A DNA stretch of 61,916 nt from a virus. Each line of letters starts with the position of its first letter. Within the stretch, counting starts at the first letter, position 1. The notes under the pieces are model-generated. The model did not search any database and had not been told where the DNA came from. It saw nothing but the letters and a program-made list of their open reading frames with translations. A program made the translations under genes and the position numbers. The stretch covers positions 1 through 61,916 of the IMG/VR virus record IMGVR_UViG_3300043639_000021, one strand, 5' to 3'. Below are positions 6,369 through 35,151 of the stretch, one piece after another.

Positions 6369-6530
6369 CTATTTTCTGGGCACCCACAGGGTGGGGACCA
6401 GTAGCTCCTTGGCCCGCTCCGGATGCACGTTCATCGTGGTCACCAGATGCCGGTAGGCTCGTGGTTTCGCCACTGGTTTCGCCATCAACGGTGCAAGGGA
6501 CCGAGTGATCGGCTTGGTCGTAATCGTCAT
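6369..6530 (-). CDS. Small basic hypothetical protein (53 aa)
   Basis: The ATG at 6530 overlaps the TGA of the large Mu F fusion gene as ATGA, a coupling pattern repeated through this operon, and the frame closes with TAG at 6369. The product starts MTITTKPITRSLAPLMAKP and ends TLWVPRK. It is basic, has no cysteine and no recognisable domain. The stop/start overlap is the main reason to accept it. Confidence 0.55.
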   Translation of the reverse strand: MTITTKPITRSLAPLMAKPVAKPRAYRHLVTTMNVHPERAKELLVPTLWVPRK

Positions 6531-9310
6531 ACCAGATACCCCTTGGCCTGTGCCACCAGTAGATCATCCGTCAAGTCCAGCCCCCACGTGCCCACCGCAT
6601 CCCCGAAGAGCCATTCCCCGATGGTCACCCCCTCGTAGGTGAAAGGAAGCTCCACAAGGGCCGACAGGGCGTCCACCGACCGGTCTTGGAGCAGATGTTC
6701 CACCAACAGACGGTCCCCCGGCTGAAGGGACGCCAGCATCGGCTCGGCAATGGTCAGCGCATGGGTGCGGAGGCTGTCCCACTCCAATTCATCGGGGAGA
6801 AATCCCAGACGGGCGTAGTAGGCCGCATTGCCTGCGACTCCTACGGCGACTTCCGTCGCGGTGGACTTGAGCCCCATGTCAATCAGGGCGCTGAACATCT
6901 GCTTCATGAACGCCAGTTCCCCTTTGGGGTTCCCGGCCTCCAGATCCGCACGGGTCAGGTAGTAGGTGCCGGTGAAGGGGTCCAACAGGGCTCCCAGCTT
7001 GAACTCGATGCCCTGCGGGCTCGATCCTCGGACGTTGAACCCGATGTTGCCAGATTCCTCAAAGCGGATCGGATTAGCCCCAACGCCTTGGCCCTTGGTC
7101 ATCACCTCCTGTGGGGGAAGCCCGGAGAACTTCGACAGCAACTCCACGGGCGTCATGCCGACGTGCTCGTTCCACTGGTCCACCTGTTCGGGGGTGGCGT
7201 CGATGCCCAGTTCCTTCAGATCATCAGCCGTCACCGCATGGAAGGCTTCGGCCTCAGCGGGAACGGTAGGCGTCACCTCCGTGCTCTCCCCAGCGGAGAA
7301 TTGAATCGCTCGGAGGATGGTGCGGCAGTGTGGATGGTACGGGGGGATGTGGAGCCCACGCTCCGTCAATTCCTCGGCACTCATCTGGGCAAACTCTGCC
7401 AGCGCGGCCTTCGTCTGCTTGGGCCATGGCTGCACCACCCGTAGGTCGTTCGGATCCTGTACTTCCAAGACCTCGATGACCTTCCGGCGGGCATCTGGGA
7501 CGTTGAACACCTTGCCGTTGATCAGGCGACAGAATCGACTCGTGCGCCCGTCAAGGATGGCGGTGAGGCGATACCGGGCCATGCCCAGCACTTCGGCCTC
7601 GGCAGTGAACCCCCACGTCGCCAGTCGGCTGCTGTTCAGGCTGGCGATCATCCGGAGGGATTCATCCCCCTGCTTGTCGAAAGACACGAACGGAGTGACA
7701 TATCGCCCGGATACCGGATCTTTCTTCTGCACCGCCGTCCCGAGATGCACAATCTCCTGCCGGTGGTCCTTGTGGCTAATGATGATAGCCGACACCACGA
7801 AAGAACCATCCACGTACAGGTCCGCATACGGTTCGGCCTTCTCCGGTTTACAGTACGCCAAGGTACAGTGGGGTTTGTAAACCGGGAACGACTTCTCCTT
7901 GAAGTCTGCGTGCTTGCCGATCTCTTTCTCGATCTGGCGTAGCTCGGGACTGGCAATCAGGGCCACGACGGGCACGGCTCCGTCACTGTGCTCACTGGCT
8001 GGGAATAGCTCCACCCGGAGGACACGGGCTTCGAAGGGTGCAAGGGTGGAGAGGTAGGCCCGCAGGCCATCGAGATCGTCGTTCTCCAAGCCGTAGCGGA
8101 CGGTCACATGATTAGGGTCTACGTCCTTGCCATCAGCCATGCAGTCCGCATCGGCTATGGTGGCACGGGCAGCATTCAGGGAGGCGGCGGCGGAACTGGC
8201 TGGGTCAATCTGAATCTGGGTGTTGCCGTACGAGTGCTCGGACTTCTGCGCGTGCTTCTCCTTGAACTTCCGGATGGCTGGTCCGTAGTCCGGAGTATCC
8301 AGCAACGCATCGTGCTCACCGGCTAGAATCTCCGCCTGTAATTGGGCATTCGACGCTTTGGCGATATACCGATACTTCTCATGCCACGGACGGGAGGTAG
8401 TGACGAACCGGCTCGGAGGGATCTCCTGCACATTGGACATGTAATCATGATCGCCACGGTTGAACTCCGCAATCCGTGCAAGAGCGTCTGGGCTGGTCTT
8501 GTCCTCCCGGCTGAACAACGGCCCTCGCCCGGAGATTTCATCTGGATCGAGAAAGACCTCGACATAATCCTTGAAATCGTGCGGCTTCGCCGTGGAGAAC
8601 CAGATAGCGTTCGGCTCTCCGTACCCGGCCCCCTTGGCTTTGGTGATAGACAACCCCTCCTTCTCGACGGCATCCATGTCCCCGGTGTAGTGGTAGCCGC
8701 GAATCTTGCCCGGTGGAATGGGGGTGGTACCGGGTTCAGCGGGTACATCAGAGAACTGACCGTGCGTGTCACGGGGATGCTGGCTCTCATCCCACGCCAG
8801 TTTCACCGCTGCGAGATAGCCGTGCTTCTTGGCATTCTTGACGGATTCTGGATCCATCGACACGGGGATCGACGTGAGCCCCTGATCCCGCAACCACGCA
8901 TACCGGTGTCGCCCGTTGGTGAACCCAACCTTGCCGTCCTCATTCACCGTGACTTCAGACGCCTCCATGGAGTCGTTCTCAGCAATGAATTCTCCGAAGG
9001 CAGGGTAGCGGTCATGGATGGCATTGGGACCACCCCCTACACCAAGATAGAACCCGGTTTCCCGCTGGAAGGCGGTATCAAACGCGACGACATTGAGGGG
9101 GACGAGCTTATCCCCGGCGCGAACGGCTCTCAGTGGCTTGACCACCTCAATTCGCCGCTCACCGACCGTGATGAAAGCTTTCTCAAGGAATCGGCCTTTG
9201 GCATCCCGTCGATGCTCCGACTCCTCCCACGCCAGCTTATGCTCGACACGTATCCGCGTGACTCGCTTGATCCAATCCGAATTCTCGGGGCGCTCGTCAA
9301 GATTGATCAC
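6527..9310 (-). CDS. Mu F-type minor head protein fused to ParB-, ART-, 2H- and GNAT-like domains
   Basis: This 927-residue protein is a chain of modules. A tag motif (WEESEHRRDAKGRF) is near residue 29. A ParB-like segment (VGFTNGRHRYAWL) is near 133. A second tag (WDESQHPRDTHGQF) is near 172. An ART-like start (YHYTG...IWFSTAKP) is near 205. Two HxT motifs of a 2H phosphodiesterase, HVTVRYG near 400 and HCTLAYC near 480, follow. The Mu F signature is RYRLTAILDGRTSRFC with GLHIPPYHPHCRTIL near 655. The C-terminus has GNAAYYARLGFLP near 832, resembling GNAT motif B. Mu F-type proteins sit at the portal inside heads, so this is probably a virion protein carrying enzymatic cargo. The Mu F and 2H calls are firm; ART and GNAT are weaker. 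Confidence 0.75.
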   Translation of the reverse strand: MINLDERPENSDWIKRVTRIRVEHKLAWEESEHRRDAKGRFLEKAFITVGERRIEVVKPLRAVRAGDKLVPLNVVAFDTAFQRETGFYLGVGGGPNAIHDRYPAFGEFIAENDSMEASEVTVNEDGKVGFTNGRHRYAWLRDQGLTSIPVSMDPESVKNAKKHGYLAAVKLAWDESQHPRDTHGQFSDVPAEPGTTPIPPGKIRGYHYTGDMDAVEKEGLSITKAKGAGYGEPNAIWFSTAKPHDFKDYVEVFLDPDEISGRGPLFSREDKTSPDALARIAEFNRGDHDYMSNVQEIPPSRFVTTSRPWHEKYRYIAKASNAQLQAEILAGEHDALLDTPDYGPAIRKFKEKHAQKSEHSYGNTQIQIDPASSAAASLNAARATIADADCMADGKDVDPNHVTVRYGLENDDLDGLRAYLSTLAPFEARVLRVELFPASEHSDGAVPVVALIASPELRQIEKEIGKHADFKEKSFPVYKPHCTLAYCKPEKAEPYADLYVDGSFVVSAIIISHKDHRQEIVHLGTAVQKKDPVSGRYVTPFVSFDKQGDESLRMIASLNSSRLATWGFTAEAEVLGMARYRLTAILDGRTSRFCRLINGKVFNVPDARRKVIEVLEVQDPNDLRVVQPWPKQTKAALAEFAQMSAEELTERGLHIPPYHPHCRTILRAIQFSAGESTEVTPTVPAEAEAFHAVTADDLKELGIDATPEQVDQWNEHVGMTPVELLSKFSGLPPQEVMTKGQGVGANPIRFEESGNIGFNVRGSSPQGIEFKLGALLDPFTGTYYLTRADLEAGNPKGELAFMKQMFSALIDMGLKSTATEVAVGVAGNAAYYARLGFLPDELEWDSLRTHALTIAEPMLASLQPGDRLLVEHLLQDRSVDALSALVELPFTYEGVTIGEWLFGDAVGTWGLDLTDDLLVAQAKGYLV

Positions 9311-10251
9311 GCCAGTAGCTCCTGAATCTTCCGCTTCGCGGTATGCTCACGGCTGGCGTCAAACACCCACGCCTGCCGGGGCTTCCCCAGCATGATTAGT
9401 TCCCGCTCGTGCAGCGCCCCTCGCCCGGTCAGTGCCGTACTCAGGATCTCCGACACCGGCACACGGGTAGTAATCACAGACGGCTCGGGGGTGTCATATG
9501 TATCTTCGCCGGGGATCTGGTCAAACGACTGATTGGACGTGAATTGAAACGCCACGTCCTCATCCGATGTCCACGACGACGCAGGCTGCATCGTCACCGT
9601 GCCCACCCCTAAGCCTAGCTCCCCACGGCCCTGTAGCCCGCCGTGTCCACGCAGCACGGACACGTGCGTAATCCCTTGCTTCGCGAACCACGCTTGCGTA
9701 TTTTCATACTCGGCTCGGACAAACGCCATTGCTCGTGATCGCTCGGGCTCTTTAAGCGTGGGATGGAATCTCAGGTGATCCGTAGCGGCATCCAACCCAA
9801 ATTCCAATCGAACCGCCTCCTGCATCTTGACGGCATCCACACTGTTCGCCGCCGTATCCGCCCACAGATCAATCTTCTCTTGAATCCACCCGGCTATCTT
9901 CGGCCCCGTCATACCAGCAAAGGCCGGGTGTTTCAACAGGCGCTCCGTCAACTCCATTTGAACCCGACGTTTCACGACGCCCCGTACCTCAGATGCCCGC
10001 AACGGATCGAACCCCGGAAAGCTGTCTCGTATGGCTCCCTCCACCTGTTTAGGAGCCACCAGCCGCGTGTGATCCTGAAACGCCCGCTGCATTTGATCGA
10101 CTTCAGCCTGCCGGGGATGGTAGGACGACACCCAGCGCCCCCCACCAGAAGTGCCCTCAGGATTCCGTGGCTGATTGGGATCGAACTTCTGTACTGGCCC
10201 GTAGAGGGGGACCAGAAATTCCCGGTCGTCAATGAGCAGTTCAGGAGTCAT
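9307..10251 (-). CDS. Tagged ADP-ribosyltransferase, R-S-E type
   Basis: An N-terminal tag motif (VQKFDPNQPRN...GGGRW) is followed by a helical region. The catalytic half shows the R-S-E layout: VSVLRGHGG (Arg), SSWTSDEDVAFQF (Ser-Thr-Ser-like strand and helix) and ALHERELIML, where E-R-E supplies the ExE pair typical of arginine-modifying ARTs. It would transfer ADP-ribose from NAD to a target, perhaps a host protein after injection. ATGA overlap with the Mu F fusion gene implies coupling. I chose ATG 10251; a GTG at 10278 behind AGAGG is an alternative start adding nine residues. Confidence 0.72.
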   Translation of the reverse strand: MTPELLIDDREFLVPLYGPVQKFDPNQPRNPEGTSGGGRWVSSYHPRQAEVDQMQRAFQDHTRLVAPKQVEGAIRDSFPGFDPLRASEVRGVVKRRVQMELTERLLKHPAFAGMTGPKIAGWIQEKIDLWADTAANSVDAVKMQEAVRLEFGLDAATDHLRFHPTLKEPERSRAMAFVRAEYENTQAWFAKQGITHVSVLRGHGGLQGRGELGLGVGTVTMQPASSWTSDEDVAFQFTSNQSFDQIPGEDTYDTPEPSVITTRVPVSEILSTALTGRGALHERELIMLGKPRQAWVFDASREHTAKRKIQELLA

Positions 10252-10864
10252 GGGGTTCAAAGGTATAGGTGAAGCCACCGAGTTGCCTCTGCAACCGGGA
10301 GTACAGCAACTTGTGGTGCATCGCGTTCGCTTCGGCTATCGAAATGTCAGAGTGAACAATTCGCTGCTCCAAGTCGGCTTTCACCGCTTCGTGCATCGCC
10401 CGCACGGCTTGATAGAAATTCGGGGGCCACGTCGCACCCGTGCGTCGAATGCTGTGCGTACCGGTAGCAATCACCGCCCGCACTTCCAACACATTCCGTT
10501 TCGCGGCGGTAAACGCATCCTGCTGACTCGGACCCATCCCTGAGGGATGATTGTGCGTCAACACCGCCCCCGTAAGATCGGCATCCGTGGCGTTCCCCAA
10601 CTGCACCGCATGAGGATCGTCATTCCCCAGCACCTTGAAGGGCTTGCCATCCCGAATCAGGAAGACATGCTCATTCATCTCGTGACGAATGCGATGCTCC
10701 GCTGCCGCCAGCGTAGGTGGCAGGGGCTCCGCCCGCATCTCCGCTGCCGTCGTCTGTCCTCCCACCCCAGCCCAGCGCCCATCGTCATCACGGGGCTGGT
10801 TCGGGTTGAACTTCAGCACCGGAATTGCACTTGATTGCACGGGGCGTAGCTGGAGGTAGAGCAT
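10241..10864 (-). CDS. Tagged RadC/JAMM-like metalloprotein
   Basis: This 207-residue protein has the tag motif (VLKFNPNQPRDDDGRW) near residue 16 and then a JAMM zinc signature, THNHPSGMGPSQQD, near residues 102-115 (HxH, S, D), as in RadC-type proteins and MPN+ isopeptidases. An upstream glutamate in HEMNEHVFLIRDG may complete the site. Such domains bind one zinc and can cleave peptide or isopeptide bonds; the RadC branch has no settled activity. A perfect copy of the palindrome falls at codons 9-13, directly before the tag. The gene starts 2 bases after its upstream neighbour. Confidence 0.7.
   Translation of the reverse strand: MLYLQLRPVQSSAIPVLKFNPNQPRDDDGRWAGVGGQTTAAEMRAEPLPPTLAAAEHRIRHEMNEHVFLIRDGKPFKVLGNDDPHAVQLGNATDADLTGAVLTHNHPSGMGPSQQDAFTAAKRNVLEVRAVIATGTHSIRRTGATWPPNFYQAVRAMHEAVKADLEQRIVHSDISIAEANAMHHKLLYSRLQRQLGGFTYTFEPHDS
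10826..10839. repeat. Palindrome TGCACTTGATTGCA
   Basis: 14/14 match, at codons 9-13 of the RadC-like gene, about 7 bases before its tag. Confidence 0.8.
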
Positions 10865-10866
10865 GG

Positions 10867-11097
10867 TCAGTCGGAGATGAACTTCGCCCGGTAGTAGGAA
10901 CCGGAGAACTCGATTTCCAACGACTTCAAGAACTCCGCGTCATCGGTCTTGCGCCCGCGTTGCATCTCGATATCTCGTAGAATCGGCGGCGGTACCGGTT
11001 CGTTGGTCTGAATCTGCACCCCCCCGTTCTCGGCCCGGATGGTACACATCACCCGTGCCCCCTGATTCCCCGTCATGGCCCACAATTCCACGTGCAT
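10867..11097 (-). CDS. Small conserved-looking hypothetical protein
   Basis: I take the start at ATG 11097 because GGAGGTGTGTG stands directly before it and a promoter (11115-11143) lies just upstream; longer forms would run into the leader. The 76-residue product starts MHVELWAMTGNQGARVMCTI and has no tag motif and no known domain. It is the first gene behind an internal promoter of the head operon, so it could mark the start of a sub-transcript covering 10867 and leftwards. Confidence 0.6.
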   Translation of the reverse strand: MHVELWAMTGNQGARVMCTIRAENGGVQIQTNEPVPPPILRDIEMQRGRKTDDAEFLKSLEIEFSGSYYRAKFISD

Positions 11098-11114
11098 CAC
11101 ACACCTCCAGTCAC

Positions 11115-11143
11115 AGTGTATCACTAGGATGACAGTTTGTCAA
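11115..11143 (-). promoter_or_regulatory. Sigma70-like promoter inside the head operon
   Basis: On the minus strand TTGACA (11138-11143), a 17-base spacer and TACACT (11115-11120) lie between the kinase-like gene and the small gene starting at 11097. The match to consensus is strong. Confidence 0.75.
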
Positions 11144-12871
11144 TCACCATGACATGAGTTGCTGATCGTTCCACAGATCGACCAGTCCTTCGGGGGTTTG
11201 CAGGGCGGTTTTGATGTTGTCCACCCGCCCCAAGAAAGCGGCACGTTCCTTGGCGTTCATGTTCGGGTGGCGATCCACCAGTGCCTGCCAATCGGTCTTC
11301 GATACCGCCCCCTGAAGCGTCTGACGTAAATCTTCGGAGATTTCCGAGTTGTTGCTTTTCCACTCTCCGACCACGCCGGATCGAAACTGAAACGAATCCG
11401 GCTCCCGAGACGCGGGCATGCTGTAGCCGTTGTCGATGGCCACGAGCTTCCCATTCTCGTAGAGGATGTTCTGGCTGTGTCGATCCATCGTGCCGATCAC
11501 GTAGTCCAGCACCGCCAGCTTGGCCTTCTCGTCATCGCTCGTAGTTCCCCAGCTTTCCGCGTTTCCACGGAACTGCTGAATGGATCCCCCCTCGGGGTGT
11601 GGGGCGTCTGCATTCCCCTCTCCACCCCTTCCGCCGCTCCCAAATCCTTGGCTCCGCCGCCAATCCGTGAAGGACGGGAACTGCTCGTCCATCAACCGGT
11701 TCTCGGTGTCGGAGTGGTCCTGTATCCACTCATCGCGATCCAGATGCTCAAACGCCTCTGTGCGGGTGGGATCTTCCAGTTCTCGGTAGCCTTCCTCCAG
11801 CCGCTTCCGGAGCAGTTCTCGGACGCGATCTTCCTCATACGTCCGCAACGACCGGCCTGCGTCGATACCCGCCCCGTCGATGACCTCTAGCAAGGGGAGC
11901 GGCCCGACGTCTCGGCGCTCAAACCCCTCAGCCGATCCCAGCGGCAAGGCCGCATGTTCACGCAGCGCAGACGGAGAACCATGGGTGTGGTCACTGGGAT
12001 AGGCTTTCTTCTCGTCCTCCCAGATTTCACGAATTTCCTCGGCCCGGTTCTCAATGTCATCGGCGTGTTCCTTCTGCGCTTCTTCGAACTTCTCGTTCAT
12101 CGCCTCCGCGACGTTCTCGTAGGCTTGATCCTGCCCGCGTTCCTTGTAGCTCTCGTAGCGGCTCCGTAATTCATCGGAGTCGTAGCCCCCGCCGCCTTCA
12201 CCACCCACTTCACTGAGATCCACATCATCCACTCGTTCTCGGAGCACCGTGGCAGGCACCAACCCGAGATTCAGTGCAGAATCGACCTCGTAGGCGAAGG
12301 CTTCCCGTTCTGCGAGAGAAAAGTCTTTGTTCTTGAGGAACCGATTGATGTCCCCATTGGTAAAGCTCATATCCCATGCTTCACCCACCTCGGGTTTGTA
12401 AAAGCCCTTGGTGCCATCTTCGAACGTCACTTTAAAGGCGGCATTTGAACCGCCTCCATAGTTATCACTGTCCGTGATCTCCCCGTTCGCCAGCGTCTCC
12501 AGCACCTCCGCTTGCGCGGCAGACGCCTTGGCATGCGCCTCTGCGGCCTCTGTGGCCTTCGCCTGCGCCACGAGAGCTTGTACTCCGGTGGTTCCTCGGG
12601 GATTGTTTTCAAACCCTGTCCCACTGGGGCCATTCATGATGTCCGCATACCCGGCGTTCCCCTGTTGACGGGACATACCCTTGGGAGTCGAGAAGTCTCC
12701 CGGCATGCTCCCCGTCCCGGCGCTCACTCCCTTGACCCACCGTCCACCAGTCGGTGTGCCTTTCTGGCCACGAGGCTGATTGCGATCCCACTTCAGTACA
12801 TCCGGAAACGTGGGCTCCATCTTGAGGATGCGCCGAATCTCTGCAATCAAGTGCCGGGTGACGGTGATCAT
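11144..12871 (-). CDS. Tagged atypical protein/lipid kinase-like protein (PI3K/HipA-type fold)
   Basis: This 575-residue protein has the tag (VLKWDRNQPRG...GGRW) near residue 25. A kinase-like domain follows: GGSNAAFKVTFEDGTKGFYK resembles a glycine-rich loop plus ATP-binding lysine, EREAFAYEVDSALNLGLVP matches the helix after it, and DYVIGTMDRHSQNIL with VAIDNGYSMP near 455-478 matches the DRH/N catalytic and metal-binding DxG elements of PI3/4-kinase and HipA-related folds. A charged coiled coil is inserted between the lobes. The substrate is unknown. Its neighbours are tagged head-locus proteins, so delivery in the virion is plausible. Confidence 0.65.
   Translation of the reverse strand: MITVTRHLIAEIRRILKMEPTFPDVLKWDRNQPRGQKGTPTGGRWVKGVSAGTGSMPGDFSTPKGMSRQQGNAGYADIMNGPSGTGFENNPRGTTGVQALVAQAKATEAAEAHAKASAAQAEVLETLANGEITDSDNYGGGSNAAFKVTFEDGTKGFYKPEVGEAWDMSFTNGDINRFLKNKDFSLAEREAFAYEVDSALNLGLVPATVLRERVDDVDLSEVGGEGGGGYDSDELRSRYESYKERGQDQAYENVAEAMNEKFEEAQKEHADDIENRAEEIREIWEDEKKAYPSDHTHGSPSALREHAALPLGSAEGFERRDVGPLPLLEVIDGAGIDAGRSLRTYEEDRVRELLRKRLEEGYRELEDPTRTEAFEHLDRDEWIQDHSDTENRLMDEQFPSFTDWRRSQGFGSGGRGGEGNADAPHPEGGSIQQFRGNAESWGTTSDDEKAKLAVLDYVIGTMDRHSQNILYENGKLVAIDNGYSMPASREPDSFQFRSGVVGEWKSNNSEISEDLRQTLQGAVSKTDWQALVDRHPNMNAKERAAFLGRVDNIKTALQTPEGLVDLWNDQQLMSW
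12842..12855. repeat. Palindrome, 13/14 match
   Basis: Inside the kinase-like gene start, about 43 bases before its tag. Confidence 0.65.
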
Positions 12872-12873
12872 CC

Positions 12874-15039
12874 TTAGCTCACTTTCGACCAGTCTACGGT
12901 GCTCATCCAGTGGGGCTTGCCACGGTCCTCGGCTTGGAGATCGATCACCAGCGTCTGGGACTCGGCCTTCTTCACCGGTTGTACGATGGGCACCTCATCG
13001 AAGGATGGGGCTCGGTTGCGCCACGCATCCCACAACCACTTGTCTTTGGTACCCACAATGACCACCTCGTGCTCGGAAGTATTATTCGCCCCGTAGATCG
13101 GCAGTGAAAGCACCGACGTAGGAGGCGTCTCGATGCGAAGGACGACTCGGATGGGATCCGGAGGCAGATTGCCGACACCACCCCACTCGTTCGCCACATC
13201 ACGAGTGCCGGTCGTAGACGCGGCTCCAGACCGTTGCAGTTGAATATCAGGCAGTTTGATAGACAAACCCACAGAAGTATTCAAATACATCGCGATTCGC
13301 CGCTGAATCGCCACCTCATTACTCTCGTAGGGAGTCTGACCGACGTCCGTGATAGTGGTGGCCTCGACGCGCTTCTTCGGAACCACAAAATGCTGGCCGT
13401 TGAAATCAAAGGCCACATGAGGGAACGGAGAATACGTACTCGTCACCTCTTTAATATTCGTGGCTGCGGGTTCGGGTTGTCCCGTTTTATCCACGATCAA
13501 ATTCGTCGTGCCCCTCACCACGTCACCGGGCATCTGCAACCCCCGATACACGGGAACTGTCGTCTCCCCGGCCCGCTGTAACACCAGTTGGTTCACTTCC
13601 CACTGGGCACGGACGTAGGCTTGCAACGTGGCGATACCGCCATAATCCTCGGCATCCGCCGTCGCGTCCTCTACCTCTTCCTTCGTCAGCCGATGGTGAC
13701 CTCCCAGTTCCAGTGCCGCCGCCAACTGCAACGACAGAGACAACCCTTCACTAGACGAAGCAATCCACTGTCCCCAAACATCGCTAATCAATTTCTGCGA
13801 CGTGGTCGGAAGAGATGCTTGTTTTTGCCAGTACGTCGCCCACTTTTCTCCGAATTCCTTAGCCAGTTCTTCTGTCTCCGCCCCGCCTACCACACTCCCC
13901 GTATCATCCTTCACCACGAACTTGCCAGCTTTAACCAGCAACGGATGATTCGCTTCAACCGTATACGCAGGTCGTTCGACAGCATGTTCCCCCGCAAACC
14001 CCCGCTCTTTCCGCAACTCATCCGTCCGTAGTTCGGTCAGACGCTTGGCAATCGTCGCTGTGCGGGCGTAGTCATCATCCTCGTGGGTGCCTTCTTTGAT
14101 GCCTGATACCCAGTGTGTCGGCTCATGACGGCCTGCGGTCCCATAGGGATTGTCCACCCCGGAGAATTCTCCGCCTGCGATCATCTCGGGAATGACGGCG
14201 GCTCGTTGCTCGGGGGACATCCGATCCCACTGCTTCTGAACTTCCGCCGTGACCAACTCCCCCCGCTCCTCCAAATACTTGTCGGTGTTCTGAACCCGCT
14301 CGATTTCATCGTCCAGCACCCGCTTGTATTCGTGGGACCACCACCCACTCACATGGGTTTTTTCGAGGGGTGTCAACTCCGTGCCATCCGTGTGTCGCAG
14401 TGCATTGGTATCCAACACCGGCACCCCGGTATCGTCCACGCGCTTCGGGTCAGGCACGCTTAACGTCTTGAAGTCCAGTGGTTTGCCCTGCGACACGCTC
14501 TTATCGAGCGCATACCCGTCCATGGGCTTGTCACCGATTCGACCTTCTACCCAGACCTTGGTCTTCTCGGCCAGTTCGGGAGCGTGGTTCTCGATCAAAT
14601 CCCACCGGACATCCACCACCATGTCAGCGTCGATGGCCTGCACGTCCACGTTGTCGTACTGAGACTCTGCGTAGTAGGCGGCAACCTTTTGCTTGGTGCT
14701 CTCAGGAAGATCCCCCCACTCCCCTTTCACCTCCGACATATCCATCGTGTCGATGGCTTCCGGTAGGAGCCTCTCGACGGCAGCGATCCCGGCCTTGGCT
14801 TGCACCGCTAACAGAGGATCGGACGTAGGGACGCCTGAACGACCGGACTCCGTGAACCGCCCGCCCTCTCGCGTGCCTTCGGGGTTGCGGGGGTGCTCAG
14901 ACTCGTCAAAGGCGTCCTTGGCCTGCTTCGGTGGGGGATGACGTTTCTCCAGCAACACCCGGATCTTGTGGACAAGCTCCTGCCCACGGATTAAGGCGTC
15001 CTCTCGGAGTATTGTTTTCTCGATGGTGTCGTGGCTCAT
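12874..15039 (-). CDS. Tagged ADP-ribosyltransferase-like protein with E-H-E motif
   Basis: This 721-residue protein has a tag motif (FDESEHPRN...EGGRF) near residue 45, a long helical middle region, and a C-terminal R-S-E type ART layout: TTVPVYRGLQMPGD (Arg near 499), EVTSTYSPFPHVAFDF (Ser/Thr strand then helix) and NTSEHEVVIVG near 654 with an ExE pair. This predicts NAD-dependent mono-ADP-ribosylation. The ATG at 15039 overlaps the stop of the previous gene as ATGA. The helical middle may be a Mu F-like or structural segment, but no clear signature is visible there. Confidence 0.65.
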   Translation of the reverse strand: MSHDTIEKTILREDALIRGQELVHKIRVLLEKRHPPPKQAKDAFDESEHPRNPEGTREGGRFTESGRSGVPTSDPLLAVQAKAGIAAVERLLPEAIDTMDMSEVKGEWGDLPESTKQKVAAYYAESQYDNVDVQAIDADMVVDVRWDLIENHAPELAEKTKVWVEGRIGDKPMDGYALDKSVSQGKPLDFKTLSVPDPKRVDDTGVPVLDTNALRHTDGTELTPLEKTHVSGWWSHEYKRVLDDEIERVQNTDKYLEERGELVTAEVQKQWDRMSPEQRAAVIPEMIAGGEFSGVDNPYGTAGRHEPTHWVSGIKEGTHEDDDYARTATIAKRLTELRTDELRKERGFAGEHAVERPAYTVEANHPLLVKAGKFVVKDDTGSVVGGAETEELAKEFGEKWATYWQKQASLPTTSQKLISDVWGQWIASSSEGLSLSLQLAAALELGGHHRLTKEEVEDATADAEDYGGIATLQAYVRAQWEVNQLVLQRAGETTVPVYRGLQMPGDVVRGTTNLIVDKTGQPEPAATNIKEVTSTYSPFPHVAFDFNGQHFVVPKKRVEATTITDVGQTPYESNEVAIQRRIAMYLNTSVGLSIKLPDIQLQRSGAASTTGTRDVANEWGGVGNLPPDPIRVVLRIETPPTSVLSLPIYGANNTSEHEVVIVGTKDKWLWDAWRNRAPSFDEVPIVQPVKKAESQTLVIDLQAEDRGKPHWMSTVDWSKVS

Positions 15040-17156
15040 AGGATAGACACACCTTCATGGGACTCTTTGAACCGGTCGAGAGCGTCTTCATCCCACATGC
15101 CCGATGACTGGATGGCCTTCAACTGATCGTAGAGGAATTGCCGCTTCTCAGGACCGTAGTTTTCGTCAATATACAGCACCCTGTCCCGCATTCCCCTACG
15201 TGCCAGTTTATCAGATAATCGCTGTGCGGCCTCGTAATCTCCTTCGACCACGAACCCTTTGACCGCTGACTTGGGCACCTGTGGCACTTTTACTTCGAAT
15301 AGTTGCTCACGGGACCGGTGCAACAGAGCTTCAGGGGATCCCGCTCGTGCCGCCGCCACGGCATAGTAGTCATCCCCCTTCACGATCATCGACCGGTACT
15401 TCTCTACCCGCCGGGGGTTGTACGTCTCCCGCATACCGGTATCATCAAACTCGGCCCCTCCCGGCACCACAACAATATCCTTCTCCGTGGCCCATCCCCC
15501 GTCCTGAAGAACTTCGTTGTCGATGATGACCGCCACGTTGCCGTAGTCTTGATGCTTCTCCCCATGGGTCATGAACACAAACCGATCCAACCCCAGCTTC
15601 TTATCAGCAGGATTGGTGGTCCCTGTGATCACCTTTTCAATGTCTTGCAATTCCTGCACGTAGCCTAAGAGCGCCTCCGCGTCACTGCGATCCAATCCCA
15701 GTCCCTCAATATCATCAGCAGTCCAGAAGGGAATGTTGCCCCAGTCCGCATCTTCACCCACGATGTTATTGATGCTGTCCTTCAGATCCTCAATGTCCTC
15801 AGTCAAATCTTTGATTTCGCCTTCCATATCTGCGTGCGAAAGCAAACCCTTCTCCACGGCTCCAAGTGCTCCGGCCACGGTCGTTCCGTGAACCAAAGGC
15901 AGGGCACGTAACTCTTGTTCTGCTGCATGCTCCTTGGCTAGATCCGGCTCTGTTCCGGACAAGAACGTCCGCACCCGCCGAAACTCAGTAATCTGCGCTT
16001 CGGCATTGGCTTTCGAATCCACGCCCTGCAAAACCTTTGCTGACGATGCAAATTGCCCGCCTTCACTAGTGCCTTTCGGCTCTCGGACGTACTCTCGTGC
16101 CACCTTCTTGCGCTTCCGGGGCACATCGGCATAGACCCGCACTTCGTGCAGGAACTTGTCGGAGCCCGTCGTCACGAGCGCATCAGCGGGAATGTCCTCA
16201 GCGGCGGTTTCCAGAATCTGCACGTGTTCGGGATTCAACTTGGCAAGGAGCTTCTGGTCCCCAAACAGGATGGGGTTCTTCAGACTCTCCACGGGATGGC
16301 CTGCGGCCTGCTCCGCTTCTCGCTCTCGCAACTGGAGATAGGCTTTGTGGGCATCCGACACGTGACTGCGGTAAATCTGTTCCCGCTCCTCCGGAGGTGG
16401 GGGTGGACCCACCCACCCACGCTTGTCCTCGGGGAGATCCTTGTCCCACACGAACGTGCGCTCCAGCGATTGATCACTCCAGTTGTGCAGGGCGAAATCC
16501 ACCGCCCCTTGGAGCGATCCCTCTGGTAACCCAGCCGCCTGCTCGTCCTCCCGTGCCCACCGCTCAATCGTGTCCTTCCGGGCTTCGCCTCGGGCTATCT
16601 GTATGGCCCGGACCAACTCTCGCTGAATGACCGTGGCATCCACAGGGCTGGACGTGAACGACACCCCTAGTGCCTGCCCACCACCCAGCCCACCGCTCTC
16701 CTTCAAGCCCAGTAGGACGCCAGAGGACTCCACCGCCGGAGCATTGGTGGTGACGTGGTAGAGCGTCGATGGAATCTGCTCACGGGGGATGGGCTCACCG
16801 GTCAGCAGATGCCCTCCGGGCTTGCCCGTCTCCTTGTCGATCCACGCCCACCGCTGTTCGTTCCCCCAACTGGAATACTGACCTACATCAGAGGGACGGT
16901 TGAAGATGCGGGGCTGGCTGGCCTCGATGAACCGGCCATCATCGCCTCGTGGGTGTGCTGCCGCATCGAACTTCCGGGTGATGCCCCCGATACCGGGAGC
17001 TTTTGCACTTGAGTGCGCGGTAAAGAAGGCGGTGCTGCCGTCGTCAAAGAGCACACGGGCAGCGGTGGCCTTCTCAGCGGGCACAGGGTGCCAGTGGGCA
17101 TCCAGATACACCACGGTGCCGGTCTTGCTGCCGATGGTGATCAGAGTAGGGGTCAC
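15036..17156 (-). CDS. Tagged protein with two ART-like (PARP/DarT-like) modules
   Basis: The GTG at 17156 overlaps the TGA of the upstream gene (GTGA); a GTG at 17177 is an alternative. Two tag motifs are present: KFDAAAHPRGDDGRF near residue 62 and EYVREPKGTSEGGQF near 352. Each precedes a possible ADP-ribosyltransferase-like module. The first has TLYHVTTNAPAVE...SFTSSP. The second has LPLVHGTTVAGALGAVEKGL and FVFMTHGEKHQDYGNVAVI. Catalytic glutamates cannot be assigned by eye, so enzyme activity is uncertain. The repeat of tag plus domain inside one chain suggests growth by module duplication. Confidence 0.58.
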   Translation of the reverse strand: MTPTLITIGSKTGTVVYLDAHWHPVPAEKATAARVLFDDGSTAFFTAHSSAKAPGIGGITRKFDAAAHPRGDDGRFIEASQPRIFNRPSDVGQYSSWGNEQRWAWIDKETGKPGGHLLTGEPIPREQIPSTLYHVTTNAPAVESSGVLLGLKESGGLGGGQALGVSFTSSPVDATVIQRELVRAIQIARGEARKDTIERWAREDEQAAGLPEGSLQGAVDFALHNWSDQSLERTFVWDKDLPEDKRGWVGPPPPPEEREQIYRSHVSDAHKAYLQLREREAEQAAGHPVESLKNPILFGDQKLLAKLNPEHVQILETAAEDIPADALVTTGSDKFLHEVRVYADVPRKRKKVAREYVREPKGTSEGGQFASSAKVLQGVDSKANAEAQITEFRRVRTFLSGTEPDLAKEHAAEQELRALPLVHGTTVAGALGAVEKGLLSHADMEGEIKDLTEDIEDLKDSINNIVGEDADWGNIPFWTADDIEGLGLDRSDAEALLGYVQELQDIEKVITGTTNPADKKLGLDRFVFMTHGEKHQDYGNVAVIIDNEVLQDGGWATEKDIVVVPGGAEFDDTGMRETYNPRRVEKYRSMIVKGDDYYAVAAARAGSPEALLHRSREQLFEVKVPQVPKSAVKGFVVEGDYEAAQRLSDKLARRGMRDRVLYIDENYGPEKRQFLYDQLKAIQSSGMWDEDALDRFKESHEGVSIL
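17004..17017. repeat. Palindrome, 13/14 match
   Basis: Inside 15036-17156, 25 bases before the first tag motif. Confidence 0.65.
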
Positions 17157-18820
17157 GCTCGATACCACTTGTGCCACTCGTACATCATTTCAGTCAGCAT
17201 CACCCACTGAGAGTCCGGATCCGGCTTTTCTTTCTCATCCCACGACTGAGGAGTAGTCATAAACCGGGTGATCTCCGCTATCGTCTCAGTGATGGCATGA
17301 TCGTACGGGTGCCAGCGGCTATCCTTCTTCTGTTCGGCAATGGCCTCCGGAGTCCAATAGGACTCCGCGTACGTGCTGTGCCCATCCTCTTGGATCATTT
17401 GCTTGGTAATACCCAGCGATCCCCTGAAGTACTCGCCGCCCGCAAGCCTCGCCACCACCGTAGAGGCTGGATAGTCTCGGGCAAACTCCTCCGCATACTC
17501 GGGTTTCAACTGTCGCCCAGTACGCCCACTCGGTCCAGTCTGCATCGAAAATCGTTCCAGAAACCACTCCGAGTACTGATCCGTGGGAGTGAACGCCTTC
17601 TTCTTATAGGCTTCTTCCTCCCGCTCGGAGGCTTGTTTCAATGCGTGGAAGATGGCGTGGGAAATCTCATGGGACACTACCCCTTGGATGTCAATCCTGT
17701 CTCCATAGGAAAGAGTAGGATCCCCGTAGGTAGACCCAATGTTTGCGGCATTCAATTGAATACGCCCCGTGGTGGGATCAAAATGCCCAGCTTCCGTAAA
17801 CTGCTTCGCGCCAACCGAAAATCCCTTGGCCTCCTCATGCACTATGTCAATGCGCGACGGATCAAACCCCATTTTCTGGGCCATCTCGTTCGCCAAAACG
17901 CGAACGGCCTCCGCCCGGATCTTGGCCCGCTCCGGGCTTACGGCCTCCAGCGTGATGTCCAGCATCGCGTCCGATCCGGCTGAACTTTCCGTGAACTTCC
18001 CGGCCCTGTCACGGGGGTGCTCGGACTCGTCCCACTTCGTGACCGTCACAAACTTGGCGGGAATAGGCTCACGACTCCACACCGAATCCGGGCCGCTGTT
18101 CCGCTTGAGTCCTTCGTACAGCAATCGCGGGAGGCGCACCGTTACCACAGCGGGTTGGGCGTGCATCTCAGAATACGATTTCGCTGACGCCATCCGTTTG
18201 GCCAACCAGATATAGTCCCGGTGTCCCTCTGGATCTCCGCCCATCGTCTGCTTGGCGACGGCGCGGATTCTGAACCCTTCCTTTAGAATCTTGTTGGCCC
18301 GTCTCCGGCTGGTGCCGTGGTATAGCTCCACAAACTCCCCGACGTGGGTGACGCCTTCGGCATCCACCCATCGACCGTGCTCATCCCGTGGTTGGGCAGG
18401 ATCGAACTTCAGCGCCTTGGTATTGGCCTCATCCGTGGCAATCAAGTGCAGGGCATCTTCTTGGATCTTGGCGGTGGCGGTGAACTCCAAGTACTGGATG
18501 ATGTTGTTGGTGACTTGCTTCAGGAAGGTGTCGAAGGTGCCGACGCCGACGAAGCTGGGCTTCTTCTTGGCTACTGTTTGGGCACCGAAGGTGGCGAACG
18601 ACAGCAGCATGTAGGTGATCCACTCCCTGTTGCTCGTACCGACCTCGGTCATGTCAAGGAAGGTCACCAGACGGCGGGCTTCATCCCACTTGTGGTCAAG
18701 ACACGCTTGGGTGATGCGGGCGTACAGGGGGGCAGACTGGATGCGCCACGCCCGTTGCAGGCGACGGACAAACGCCCGCTCTAGCAGGAGATACGTGCGA
18801 AGGTCAACGGTCTTGGCCAC
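17153..18820 (-). CDS. Tagged minor head protein with ART-like and HEISH metalloprotease domains
   Basis: The start is a GTG at 18820. The first 130 residues are helical and lie next to the portal gene, like the N-terminal portal-binding part of Mu F proteins. A tag (KFDPAQPRDEHGRW) near 137 is followed by VELYHGTSRRRANKILKEGF, an opening typical of PARP/KptA-like ADP-ribosyltransferase folds. A second tag (KWDESEHPRDRAGKF) near 266 precedes a zincin with VVSHEISHAIFHAL near 384 (HExxH) and ETIAEITR near 512 as a possible third ligand. The protein thus joins an NAD-linked domain and a metalloprotease to a head-associated N-terminus. Confidence 0.65.
   Translation of the reverse strand: MAKTVDLRTYLLLERAFVRRLQRAWRIQSAPLYARITQACLDHKWDEARRLVTFLDMTEVGTSNREWITYMLLSFATFGAQTVAKKKPSFVGVGTFDTFLKQVTNNIIQYLEFTATAKIQEDALHLIATDEANTKALKFDPAQPRDEHGRWVDAEGVTHVGEFVELYHGTSRRRANKILKEGFRIRAVAKQTMGGDPEGHRDYIWLAKRMASAKSYSEMHAQPAVVTVRLPRLLYEGLKRNSGPDSVWSREPIPAKFVTVTKWDESEHPRDRAGKFTESSAGSDAMLDITLEAVSPERAKIRAEAVRVLANEMAQKMGFDPSRIDIVHEEAKGFSVGAKQFTEAGHFDPTTGRIQLNAANIGSTYGDPTLSYGDRIDIQGVVSHEISHAIFHALKQASEREEEAYKKKAFTPTDQYSEWFLERFSMQTGPSGRTGRQLKPEYAEEFARDYPASTVVARLAGGEYFRGSLGITKQMIQEDGHSTYAESYWTPEAIAEQKKDSRWHPYDHAITETIAEITRFMTTPQSWDEKEKPDPDSQWVMLTEMMYEWHKWYRA
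18437..18450. repeat. Palindrome, 13/14 match
   Basis: Inside 17153-18820, about 22 bases before the first tag motif. Confidence 0.65.
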
Positions 18821-19064
18821 TCTGTTTCCCGGCCTCCTCCACGATTTGCGTCACAGCTTCCTTCTTGACCGCTTTCGCGTCCCGCTCCCCACGTTCCTTG
18901 GCGTGAGCCGTCATCCAATTGTTAATGTCGGTGCTGAAATTCGACCACCACGACAAGAACACCAGATAGCGCACCGACTCCTGCCACGAGGTGAGCGTGG
19001 GATAGAGCAACAACACCCACACCACCACCGTCAGCGAATAGAAGTACGAGAGTTTGAACCTCAC
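18804..19064 (-). CDS. Small membrane protein in the portal operon
   Basis: The 86-residue product has one long hydrophobic stretch near residues 5-26 (YFYSLTVVVWVLLLYPTLT) and perhaps a second near 32-43, followed by a charged tail. The ATG overlaps the stop of the previous gene (ATGA) and its own end overlaps the next gene by 17 bases. A holin-like or injection-related role is possible, but nothing specific is visible. Confidence 0.55.
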   Translation of the reverse strand: MRFKLSYFYSLTVVVWVLLLYPTLTSWQESVRYLVFLSWWSNFSTDINNWMTAHAKERGERDAKAVKKEAVTQIVEEAGKQSGQDR

Positions 19065-19471
19065 TCCTGTTCCCGTGCGGCTCGGAAGGCTTTCTGCTTC
19101 GCTCGGCCTTGGGCCATGCGATAGTCCAGATCCCGCTGCTTCTCCGCCACGATGCCCCCACGGTCCAGCCGTGCCTCGCGCATCCTCCCGGCCTTGGCCT
19201 TGTGCTCCTTGTTCTTCTCGACCACCCGTGCCCGTGCCGCTACATAACGATCCAGTTGCGTGACCGCATAATCACGAAACTGCGCCGGATCCACCCCTGC
19301 ACGCTCCGCGTGAATCGCGGCTTCCGCCACCACATGCTGGCGGGCCTTCAACGGCGTGTGTCCCGCCTCCAACCCCTCAATCACCCCGGCGTCGAACACC
19401 TCGGTGAATCGGCCATTCGGTCCTCGGGGATGCGCGGCCTCATCGAACTTCAGGATGTCGGCATACGTCAT
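19061..19471 (-). CDS. Tagged small head-locus protein
   Basis: This 136-residue protein starts MTYADILKFDEAAHPRGPNG, so the tag is almost at the N-terminus, and the remainder is a charged helical tail with no cargo domain. It could be the simplest form of the tagged family, perhaps a structural subunit to which the tag normally belongs. ATGA overlaps join it to the portal gene and to the next gene. Confidence 0.6.
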   Translation of the reverse strand: MTYADILKFDEAAHPRGPNGRFTEVFDAGVIEGLEAGHTPLKARQHVVAEAAIHAERAGVDPAQFRDYAVTQLDRYVAARARVVEKNKEHKAKAGRMREARLDRGGIVAEKQRDLDYRMAQGRAKQKAFRAAREQE

Positions 19472-21339
19472 CGCAGCACCCCCACCACCGCTGACAGGTC
19501 CGCATCATCAGAGCCGTAGACCAGCATCGCCAGCAAGCTGTTGAACGCTCGGGCATCATCGGGATCCAACGTCTCAATCTCGGCGTTGATCTCGGTGGCC
19601 CGCTCGGGTGTCAACTCCTGCTTGATGGCCAGTTGTGGCAGGAGCCCTTGGTAGACGGCGTAATCCTGCACCAGTGACAGGAGATCGCCTGCGGCCTTCC
19701 GGTACTTGGCCTTGGCCTTCTCCCGTGCCATCGCCTTGGCTTCTTCCTTCGCGCCGATCTCATCTGGGGTTTCGACCTTCGGCTCGGGCTGTTTCTGCGG
19801 AGCCGTCATCGGGGGATGCACCGTGGACGCCGGAAGCTCACCAGACGGGATCTCGTCCATCGTAGGCGTGTTCGGCAGCGGCGTCTCGCCGGGGGCAACG
19901 TTGGGAGCCGGAGCTTCCGACATCTCCAGATTCATCTGGCCCAGCGTGTTCATCTCTTGGAGGAAGCTCTCACGGGTGGCGACAGGCATCGCCAGTTCCA
20001 ACCCCTTCAACTGCGTGGCCACATCCTTCAGGGTGATGGGCTTGGACTTGTAGATGAGGGTCTTGAGCTTCATCTCTTTGAGAATGGTCTTGTTGATCAT
20101 CTCATCGAATTCGGTGCGCTCGGGCAGGAACACCTGTGCCTCGGCCACCATATAGCTCGTTTGTGCGGTGGCGAAGTTGTAGTCAGCGGCGTAGCCAAGG
20201 AAGAGGGGCGGCAGACGGAAGCCGATCCGGACGTGCTCCTTCGTCTGCTCATCGTAGTTGGTGAACATGGCGTCTTGACTCTGAGCAGAGCCGAAGCGTT
20301 CCACCTTCACGTCCACCTTACCCGCCGCATCCAGTGACCCGCTGGAGGACTGCACTTCTACGACCACCGCCCGGTTCTTGTTCTTGTTCAGACCGCTTAG
20401 GTACATCCGCAACTGGTCGGACGTGTCCTTGATCAGCGTGCCTCCCTGAATGAACACGATGGCGGGCGGGAGGCCACCGGCATCGAGGAATTGCAGGTTC
20501 TGTTCTTCCGCCGCACGGGAACCGATCACCGATGGCAACTGGTTGATCCACCGGGGCAGGTAATAGGGCGTCGTAATATCAGGGTTGATGCCCAGCATCA
20601 GCAACTCGGAGCCGCGCTTCTCCGCCGGAACTTTCTCGGTGTCCGTCTCCCACTTCCCCGTCTCCCGATGAATCTCACGGGTGGTCCCAAACTCCCGGTA
20701 GTAGACTTGGGTTTTCAGGCCCACCGACTGCGCGAACCGTCGCTCCCGATCCCACAGGACCAGTTCGACTTCTTTGCCGTTCCGGGTGATCTTCTTCTTG
20801 ACCTGAATGGGGGCATCGAGCTTCACCAGCCGGATGTGGGAGGTTTCCACACTTCGAAGTCCGACGATATCGCCTCCGATATTCCGGAGCACCTCCATAA
20901 AGCCGTAGCCCACGGACTCCATCTGCCGCCGCAGCTTGCGACGAATGCCGGTCATCGACGTATTGGGGTAGGGCTCATCAAAGAACCCGGTGGCGATCTT
21001 CTCTTCCTCCTTGTCGATATCCTTGCCTTCCTCAACGGGCACCAACTCGTAGCCCGTGCCGTCGATGTTGACTTCCATCGCCTCGATGCACTGGTTCAGG
21101 ACGTTGTTGGTTTGGACAAGGTTCAGGAGGACGTTCGGTTCGAAGGGCGGCATCAGGTAGAGGTTATCCTGCTGCCCCGCCGTGTAATAGAGGTTGGCAA
21201 ACTCGTCCTCTAGTTCGACGGTCGTCTGCGCCATCACCAGCCACGTCTCGTTCTTGATCACCTTCTGGATGAAGTGGATCTTGGACTCGGGACTCTTGAC
21301 TGGCTTTGAGGGAACGACTCCCTCTGTGAGCTTCAGCAT
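19468..21339 (-). CDS. Portal protein, PBSX/SPP1-like family
   Basis: This is a 623-residue portal subunit. The segment YYLPRWINQLPSVIGSRAAE, followed by EQNLQFLDAGGLPPAIVFIQGG and the clip/wing-like FRLPPLFLGYAADYNFATAQ, matches PBSX-type portals. Twelve copies would form the ring at the head vertex through which DNA passes. I start at ATG 21339, seven bases after AAGGA; a TTG at 21345 is less likely. The C-terminus is proline-rich and then helical. It is the first gene after the promoter at 21387-21415 and heads the tagged-protein operon. Confidence 0.88.
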   Translation of the reverse strand: MLKLTEGVVPSKPVKSPESKIHFIQKVIKNETWLVMAQTTVELEDEFANLYYTAGQQDNLYLMPPFEPNVLLNLVQTNNVLNQCIEAMEVNIDGTGYELVPVEEGKDIDKEEEKIATGFFDEPYPNTSMTGIRRKLRRQMESVGYGFMEVLRNIGGDIVGLRSVETSHIRLVKLDAPIQVKKKITRNGKEVELVLWDRERRFAQSVGLKTQVYYREFGTTREIHRETGKWETDTEKVPAEKRGSELLMLGINPDITTPYYLPRWINQLPSVIGSRAAEEQNLQFLDAGGLPPAIVFIQGGTLIKDTSDQLRMYLSGLNKNKNRAVVVEVQSSSGSLDAAGKVDVKVERFGSAQSQDAMFTNYDEQTKEHVRIGFRLPPLFLGYAADYNFATAQTSYMVAEAQVFLPERTEFDEMINKTILKEMKLKTLIYKSKPITLKDVATQLKGLELAMPVATRESFLQEMNTLGQMNLEMSEAPAPNVAPGETPLPNTPTMDEIPSGELPASTVHPPMTAPQKQPEPKVETPDEIGAKEEAKAMAREKAKAKYRKAAGDLLSLVQDYAVYQGLLPQLAIKQELTPERATEINAEIETLDPDDARAFNSLLAMLVYGSDDADLSAVVGVLR

Positions 21340-21386
21340 TGCCAAATCCTTAACAAAGCGGAGTGTCGAGGGTTTAGATGCTGATC

Positions 21387-34879: not shown

Positions 34880-34917
34880 ATGTGCTTCCCACTCCATTGG
34901 TCAGACTTGACTTCATC

Positions 34918-34992: not shown

Positions 34993-35021
34993 ACGGTAAC
35001 ACGTCCGTAGCTATTTGTCAA
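34993..35021 (-). promoter_or_regulatory. Distal promoter of the PPDK-like gene (TACCGT type)
   Basis: Minus-strand TTGACA (35016-35021), 17 bases, TACCGT (34993-34998). The same weaker -10 and the flanking CGTGT occur at 54694-54722, so the two may share regulation. Confidence 0.5.
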
Positions 35022-35151
35022 CCGGCTTCTTGTACTCCCCCTTCAGGATGGCCGCGTAATCCAGTGCGCTGGCTTCAGCCGCTTCCTGTAGCTTCGGGGA
35101 CACCTCGGGCAGCGGCTTGGGATCCGCCTTGATCAGCATCTTCAACGCCAT
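35011..35151 (-). CDS. Small protein (46 aa), separate or C-terminus of the fused frame
   Basis: The ATG at 35151 overlaps the TAA of the 50-residue gene (TAATG). The product is MALKMLIKADPKPLPEVSPK and ends AAILKGEYKKPVDK. It lies in the same frame as the tagged protein upstream, which has lost its stop, so it could also be that protein's C-terminus. I think it is an independent small gene because of the overlap and its coding-like composition. Confidence 0.5.
   Translation of the reverse strand: MALKMLIKADPKPLPEVSPKLQEAAEASALDYAAILKGEYKKPVDK

What the first reader, a model, noticed from the sequence alone, without database searches (positions are those of the whole stretch)
9307..18820. 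Multiple ADP-ribosyltransferase-like domains in one head locus
Seen: R-S-E type patterns at 9307-10251 (ERE) and 12874-15039 (EHE), PARP/KptA-like openings at 17153 (YHGTSRRRANKILKEGF), two possible ones at 15036, a weaker one in 6527 and another at 35870. Known: ARTs such as T4 Alt are carried in phage heads and modify host proteins at infection. Inference: this phage may inject a panel of ARTs.
Basis: partly seen in the sequence, partly recalled or inferred. Interest (0 to 1): 0.72.

Follow-up and report, generated by a model that had tools for sequence, protein, structure and literature searches.

The report
Tagged effector array inside head-protein gene
Between the two halves of one of its head-protein genes this uncultured phage carries about 10.7 kb of mixed enzyme modules, including at least two well-supported protein-modifying enzymes (ADP-ribosyltransferases), most preceded by the same short peptide tag, which in many unrelated phages marks where a head protein ends and a probable injected enzyme begins.

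Summary
Two domains (9307-10278, 12874-15039) are well-supported R-S-ExE ADP-ribosyltransferases (ARTs). One (17153) is probably KptA/PARP-like. 6527 and the first half of 15036 are motif-level only. The second half of 15036 and 35870 are unproven.

(1) Twelve ORFs, ten of them between portal and prohead protease, carry 14 copies of a short tag, [FWY]DxxxHPRDxxG[RKQ][FW] plus a Gly-rich linker. Across IMG/VR the tag sits at the border between head-structural domains (portal, MuF, protease) on its N-side and effectors (ARTs, zeta toxin, RelA, Acb1, CDI nuclease) on its C-side: up to 27 portal matches in 109 N-side segments, none listed for 150 C-side segments. It is conserved as protein, not DNA. 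(2) The array is inserted at one point inside an ancestral MuF-type head gene. Its halves are 19-31 bp apart in phage DLP5 and L030, and 10.7 kb apart here, with intermediates.

I infer that tags separate head carrier from injected cargo, most likely as cleavage sites, alternatively as head-loading signals. Neither is shown. Head-packaged ARTs are known; I found no description of the tag or the split-MuF slot.

The parts
19468..21345 (-). portal protein; start of the head module
   Evidence: phrog_12 E 2e-24; 48% identical to phage DLP5 portal
19061..19471 (-). 136-aa protein with N-terminal tag (tag at 19397-19456)
   Evidence: tag HMM E 2.3e-11 (that HMM includes this copy)
18416..18820 (-). 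N-terminal half (residues 1-135) of the ancestral MuF-type minor head protein
   Evidence: aligns to residues 14-138 of contiguous DLP5 gp3 (30%) and to L030, L031
18359..18415 (-). tag ALKFDPAQPRDEHGRWVDA, exactly at the insertion point
18041..18367 (-). KptA/PARP-like ART domain of ORF 17153-18820 (YHGTSRRRANKILKEGF)
   Evidence: phrog_5470 RNA 2'-phosphotransferase E 2e-4; Pfam PARP E 0.014, below cut-off
17984..18043 (-). tag VTKWDESEHPRDRAGKFTES
17201..17950 (-). zinc-peptidase-like domain (HEISH at residue 384 of ORF 17153-18820)
   Evidence: motif; Pfam Astacin E 0.13 only; region conserved in relatives
16920..16979 (-). tag TRKFDAAAHPRGDDGRFIEA of ORF 15036-17177
16125..16787 (-). possible PARP/KptA-like ART domain D1 of ORF 15036-17177 (LYHVTT ... 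FLHEV)
   Evidence: 72% mean column identity in 9 relatives, H and E invariant; fold not confirmed
15318..15905 (-). second possible ART-like domain D2 of ORF 15036-17177 (VHGTTVAGALGAVEKGL)
   Evidence: motif only; no distant relatives
14845..14919 (-). tag KDAFDESEHPRNPEGTREGGRFTES of ORF 12874-15039
12970..13842 (-). ART domain of ORF 12874-15039 (R498, STT608-610, E656-H-E658)
   Evidence: nearly invariant in 12 homologues; hhalign to the P9307 family E 5.7e-14
11144..12871 (-). tag (12728-12799) + PI3K/PI4K-like kinase domain
   Evidence: Pfam PI3_PI4_kinase E 1.8e-10, above cut-off; tag
10241..10864 (-). tag (10763-10819) + RadC/JAB-like fragment (HNHPSG)
   Evidence: RadC E 0.072, weak; phrog_10276 E 0.019; tag
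9307..10278 (-). tag (10123-10194) + ART domain (about 9343-9996; R210, S235, E291xE293)
   Evidence: invariant R, S, ExE; DRAT in 4/13 relatives; model and ART fold matches
7733..9310 (-). cargo part of ORF 6527-9310: tag (9179-9238), ParB/PFIN-like domain, tag (8744-8803), possible ART-like domain (8336-8725), 2H phosphoesterase (7829-8125)
   Evidence: 2_5_RNA_ligase2 E 9.9e-10, PFIN E 2e-4; tags
6527..7732 (-). C-terminal half (MuF domain and beyond, residues 527-927) of the ancestral MuF-type minor head protein
   Evidence: 55% identical to DLP5 gp3 147-285; matches L030 184-579; Pfam MuF E 8.7e-4, below cut-off
7733..18415 (-). cargo array inserted between the two MuF halves; the homologous slot is 31 bp in DLP5 and 19 bp in L030/L034
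5067..5717 (-). protein with a weak tag (5397-5453)
   Evidence: tag E 0.0019; phrog_12708 head maturation protease E 0.0043
2565..5066 (-). FAD/NAD thioredoxin-reductase-like domain + long-form tag (3360-3431) + ParB-like domain
   Evidence: tag E 1e-6; phrog_6397 E 2.2e-28, named 'ribonucleotide reductase' there; domain reading from the sequence
1981..2568 (-). prohead protease, directly downstream of the tagged genes
   Evidence: phrog_15223 E 4e-66 and several head maturation protease families
35011..36754 (-). two tagged ORFs outside the head operon (tags 35686-35742, 36683-36739), next to a virion structural gene at 37552-41448

Best explanation
The locus is an array of effectors (cargo) carried by the phage head. 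It is inserted at one point inside a MuF-type minor head protein gene, between its N-terminal helical domain and its MuF domain, so that the two halves now lie on different ORFs with about 10.7 kb of cargo between them. Nearly every cargo module is preceded by a 14-20 residue tag, [FWY][DN]xxx(H)PRDxxG[RKQ][FW], with a flexible Gly-rich linker. The tag marks the border between a head-structural carrier on its N-side and an effector on its C-side, or between two effectors. I think it most likely that the prohead protease encoded next door cuts at or near the tags while the head matures, freeing single effectors that leave with the DNA and act on the host early in infection: ARTs on host proteins or RNA, 2H on nucleotides or RNA, and a kinase. 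Shown here by sequence: the ART domains 9307 and 12874, the tag and its border position, and the insertion inside MuF. Inferred: packaging, cleavage, injection and targets.
For: Tag: 14 copies in 12 window ORFs against 1 hit in 10 shuffles. All tagged ORFs in portal-related loci lie on the portal's strand; cultured relatives DLP5 and RcZahn have none in the stretches read. A blind search with 22-aa tags hit 26 phage records; the six regions opened are all head modules (protease N-termini, portals, genes next to portal). N-side segments (109) have portal matches 9+8+6+2+2, MuF 5, S78 3; C-side segments (150) have no portal listed, ART-family matches 16+8+3, zeta toxin, RelA, Acb1, CDI toxin, PBECR1 (Fisher p 9e-12 for portals if the portal counts are disjoint, 3e-4 as lower bound). 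Portal-tag-LPD3 in a Helicobacter prophage. Protein-level conservation: 120 distinct DNA forms of 121 and 123 of 124. Tags lie in pLDDT below 50 in both models. MuF slot: gap 19-31 bp in DLP5/L030/L034, 574 bp in L028 and 2.3 kb in L031 within one ORF, 3-13 kb with the halves on different ORFs in L016, L021, L008/L011, L018, L058, L105 and the window. The same modules are fused in one chain in relatives and separate ORFs here, as processing at tags would allow.
Against: No virion or mass-spectrometry data exist for this phage; packaging and injection are not shown. Cleavage is untested: known prohead protease families were found in only about half of 50 tag-bearing records (S78 10, S78_2 8, DUF2213 7, partly overlapping), many of them possibly fragments, with no baseline. 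No tag was found in the presumed major capsid gene. The tag also occurs near the N-terminus of bacterial chromosomal toxin genes, not all visibly in prophages. A portal can hardly lie C-terminal to a fused effector, so part of the N/C asymmetry is geometric. L028 has an inserted 2H module without a recognisable tag.
Confidence: 0.6

Rival explanations
1. The tag is a head-loading (incorporation) signal, not a cut site: it docks minor proteins to the scaffold or capsid interior, like the T4 capsid targeting sequence without cleavage or an encapsulin cargo-loading peptide.
For: It occurs on many kinds of minor head proteins and on free-standing effectors with only 10-50 residues before it; N-terminal on mycobacteriophage and Nocardia phage proteases.
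Against: It is also found between a portal or MuF domain and an effector, where loading is already assured, and is repeated up to six times in one chain.
Confidence: 0.25
2. The tag is a passive flexible linker or a recombination seam that lets modules be swapped, with no binding partner or protease.
For: Modules are shuffled between loci and fused or split at tags; a Gly-rich stretch follows.
Against: The residues are conserved at protein level with free codon choice, so DNA homology is not what is kept; a passive linker would not need fixed W/F, HPRD and G[RK][FW] positions (partly fixed by the search pattern).
Confidence: 0.15
3. Ordinary polyvalent or MuF-type head effectors with ART domains, as already catalogued; tag and split are lineage details.
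For: The main cargo kinds are listed in PMC5512222 and PMC9503650; MuF toxins in PMC5576092.
Against: The passages read describe effectors joined to MuF or portal or in one long chain; the polyvalent main text does not contain 'linker', and the MuF paper not 'motif' or 'cleav'. The tag spans unrelated portal families.
Confidence: 0.4
4. The motifs are not ARTs (chance R-S-E patterns).
For: PDB sequence searches found nothing; Foldseek best E only 0.06; 15036 model uninformative.
Against: Invariant R, S, ExE, DRAT matches, top-20 structural matches all ARTs, and P9307-P12874 profile homology with the motifs aligned.
Confidence: 0.06

Closest known systems
Polyvalent proteins of phages and conjugative elements (Iyer et al. 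2017, PMC5512222)
   Same: ART, zinc peptidase, 2H, MuF and ParB-like domains combined in head-neighbourhood proteins thought to be injected
   Different: Here the domains are spread over about 10 ORFs, separated by a recurrent tag, and lie inside a split MuF gene; the main text does not use the word linker and no such tag was seen in the passages read
MuF polymorphic toxins (Jamet et al. 2017, PMC5576092)
   Same: Effector domains joined to the MuF minor head protein next to the portal
   Different: There toxin domains follow an N-terminal MuF domain; here cargo sits between the N-terminal domain and the MuF domain, and the halves are separated
T4 Alt / head-packaged ARTs (reviewed in PMC9503650)
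   Same: R-S-E type ARTs near head genes, probably modifying host molecules early
   Different: Several unlike ARTs per phage; relatives match DRAT in Pfam; no sequence relation to Alt was tested for this window's ARTs
Junction motifs of polymorphic toxins (CDI VENN, Rhs DPxGL) (from memory)
   Same: Short conserved peptide at the border of carrier and variable toxin
   Different: Different sequence, phage-head carrier; comparison is functional only
T4-type capsid targeting sequence and prohead protease sites; encapsulin cargo-loading peptides (from memory)
   Same: Short peptides that route proteins into an HK97-fold shell, in T4 then cut
   Different: Different sequence; position between domains rather than only at a terminus; no cleavage data

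Membership tests
R-S-E ADP-ribosyltransferases (P9307, P12874) | Arg in first strand, Ser(-Thr-Ser) motif, ExE | tested here: met
R-S-E ADP-ribosyltransferases (P9307) | ART fold | tested here: met
   pTM 0.75 model; top 20 VIA rows all ARTs, but modest Z 4.8-5.7; Foldseek E 0.06
R-S-E ADP-ribosyltransferases | NAD-dependent ADP-ribosyl transfer | not testable with these tools
   needs a biochemical assay
KptA/PARP-like ART (17153) | family-level sequence match | tested here: inconclusive
   phrog_5470 E 2e-4; PARP E 0.014 below cut-off
PARP/KptA-like ART (15036, 6527, 35870) | sequence or fold match | tested here: inconclusive
   motifs only; poor model; none for 35870
MuF minor head protein | MuF domain downstream of portal | tested here: met
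   55% identity of P6527 527-665 to DLP5 gp3; PHROG head families
MuF polymorphic toxin | effector C-terminal to MuF in one chain | tested here: not met
   cargo lies between the N-half and the MuF half, on several ORFs
Phage polyvalent protein | two or more disparate effector domains in one head-associated polypeptide | tested here: met
   ORF 6527-9310: PFIN-like (below cut-off), 2H, MuF
Prohead-protease substrate | cut at or near the tag during maturation | not testable with these tools
   protease present next door; no cleavage data

The most novel reading that the evidence does not exclude
The tag is a general signal of tailed phages, shared by unrelated head types and by chromosomal toxins, that marks and releases (or loads) injected effector cargo; reading it would list a phage's injected effectors from sequence alone, and the MuF gene can serve as an expandable cargo slot.
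Probability: 0.4. Interest if true: 0.88.

Novelty: new variant of a known kind. Interest (0 to 1): 0.7.

Why it matters
It is not known in general how phages choose which enzymes to carry in the head and inject. A short peptide at carrier-cargo borders would give a way to predict injected effectors across phages, including many unknown ones, and a testable account of how they are freed from portal or MuF. The split MuF gene shows how a phage can add effectors stepwise without losing a head protein.

Tried and rejected
PDB sequence searches with the three ART profiles: no ART hit. PDB search with tag peptides: nothing. Structure of ORF 15036-17177: low confidence, fold comparison uninformative. 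Relatives of 15036 D2 and the 17153 ART in IMG/VR: D2 none beyond a near-identical copy, the 17153 ART none by that search (one relative in L229 by local search). Prohead-protease co-occurrence as a test of cleavage: inconclusive without a baseline. tblastn of Gly-rich or long-form tags against phages: empty or weak Vibrio hits. Considered that the tag is a DNA repeat or recombination site: rejected by codon variation. Literature search for tag sequences in full text: none. 35870 as an ART: no support.

Full report
Setting. The window is an IMG/VR virus record, 60% G+C, with the genes discussed here on the - strand. The portal (21345-19468) is 48% identical to that of Stenotrophomonas phage DLP5. 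In DLP5 the portal is followed directly by one 'ParB-like' gene, a protease and, two genes further on, the capsid; in Rhodobacter phage RcZahn by the protease. Here about 17 kb of other genes lie between portal and protease (1981-2568).

ORF 9307-10278 is an ART: 13-sequence alignment with invariant R210-G, S235, E291xE293, DRAT matches in four relatives, and a model (pTM 0.75) whose top structural matches are all ARTs, although at modest Z 4.8-5.7. ORF 12874-15039 ends in a related ART: hhalign E 5.7e-14 to the first family with R, S and ExE aligned. ORF 17153-18820 has a probable KptA/PARP-like domain. The first motif in 15036 is strictly conserved, but its model was too poor to judge. The others are motif-level or unsupported. 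So at least two, probably three, and possibly five or more ARTs.

The tag. Twelve ORFs carry a short peptide such as KFDPAQPRDEHGRW or KWDESEHPRDRAGKF, 14 copies, in one long form with an insert (PRNPEGTSGGGRW). Shuffled ORFs gave 1 hit in 10 shuffles against 14 (window copies are part of the model). In related IMG/VR loci all tagged ORFs lie on the portal's strand, with up to five tags in a 1746-aa chain. A blind 22-aa search of cultured phages hit 26 records; the six regions opened are all head modules: protease N-termini in a mycobacteriophage and Nocardia phage P3.1, portals in Xanthomonas and Helicobacter phages, and the genes beside the portals of Streptomyces phage Gilgamesh and Gordonia phage Forza, the latter with an ART two genes on. 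Almost every DNA form is distinct, so selection is on the peptide.

What lies on each side. I cut 221 tag ORFs at their tags. Of 109 non-redundant N-side segments, Pfam finds five portal families (9, 8, 6, 2, 2 members), MuF 5 and S78 protease 3. Of 150 C-side segments none is listed as a portal, but there are 27 matches to ART families, with zeta toxin, RelA/SpoT, Acb1, CDI nuclease, PBECR1, GNAT, PI3K-like and topoisomerase IB. Fisher p is 9e-12 if the portal counts are disjoint and 3e-4 counting one family only. Part of this is geometric, as a portal can hardly be C-terminal, and only the 25 commonest families are printed. A Helicobacter prophage shows the border directly: portal, tag, LPD3. 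In bacterial genomes 26 matches were found in 257 Gb, mostly in Rhizobiales and Actinobacteria, as a short N-terminal stretch, tag, then toxin-like domains, some beside portal or terminase genes.

The slot in MuF. DLP5 gp3 and L030 have one contiguous protein whose first part matches residues 6-138 of ORF 17153-18820 and whose later part matches from residue 527 on of ORF 6527-9310 (to 665 in DLP5, to 926 in L030). In this phage the first half ends exactly where the first tag begins (window 18415) and the second half begins at 7732, 10.7 kb away. Across relatives the gap is 19, 31, 574 and 2266 bp within one ORF, then 3.0, 4.7, 5.6, 8.5, 10.7, 10.8 and 13.0 kb with the halves on different ORFs. 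L028 holds a single 2H-like module in the slot; L031 GNAT-, topoisomerase IB- and 2H-like domains; L016 and L021 use a second tag form, NPYHDxxGRF (domain names of these from reading the sequence). Modules fused in one chain in relatives (for example 15036 D1 with 12874) are separate ORFs here.

Mechanism. The simplest reading is carrier, tag, cargo. Everything N-terminal to a tag gets a protein into the head; everything C-terminal is to be delivered. A cut at the tag by the neighbouring protease would free the cargo, would make fused and split gene forms equivalent and would let a head protein tolerate cargo in its middle. A loading signal is the main rival. Disorder at the tags in both models fits either. 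Nothing here shows cutting, packaging or injection; the protease co-occurrence test was inconclusive.

Known and new. The cargo domains and the idea of head-packaged ARTs are known (PMC5512222, PMC9503650, PMC5576092). I did not find the tag or the split-MuF slot described: six tag strings are absent from the full text of the library, though peptides may be printed otherwise and many journals are missing.

Noticed in passing
L031:12198-16721: Intein-like insertion (Hint-type sequence) inside the conserved HPxCRT motif of the MuF domain.
   Followed up: no
window 2565-5066: Thioredoxin-reductase-like FAD/NAD domain fused through a long-form tag to a ParB-like domain; PHROG names the family ribonucleotide reductase, which looks wrong from the sequence.
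   Followed up: partly
window 35011-36754: Second, small cargo site outside the head operon; its module 35870 has a relative inside the head array of L024.
   Followed up: partly
L174:1-2349 (-): Tandem tag-ART-tag-ART-tag chain with two ARTs of the P9307 family.
   Followed up: partly
NC_073461.1 31978-45852 (Streptomyces phage Gilgamesh gp48): 4624-residue unannotated protein with an N-terminal tag, next to the portal-MuF fusion; only one tag found in it.
   Followed up: partly
L016, L021: Second tag form NPYHDxxG[RKY]F with the same ending, used in the same MuF slot.
   Followed up: partly
L284-L309 (bacterial genomes): Stand-alone tag plus toxin-like genes (RNase A-like, deaminase, HNH-like) in Rhizobiales and Actinobacteria chromosomes; delivery route unknown.
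   Followed up: partly
window 32927-34897: Large protein matching phrog_18609 'kinase' at E 8.6e-155; RcZahn gp6 is annotated pyruvate phosphate dikinase, relation not tested.
   Followed up: no
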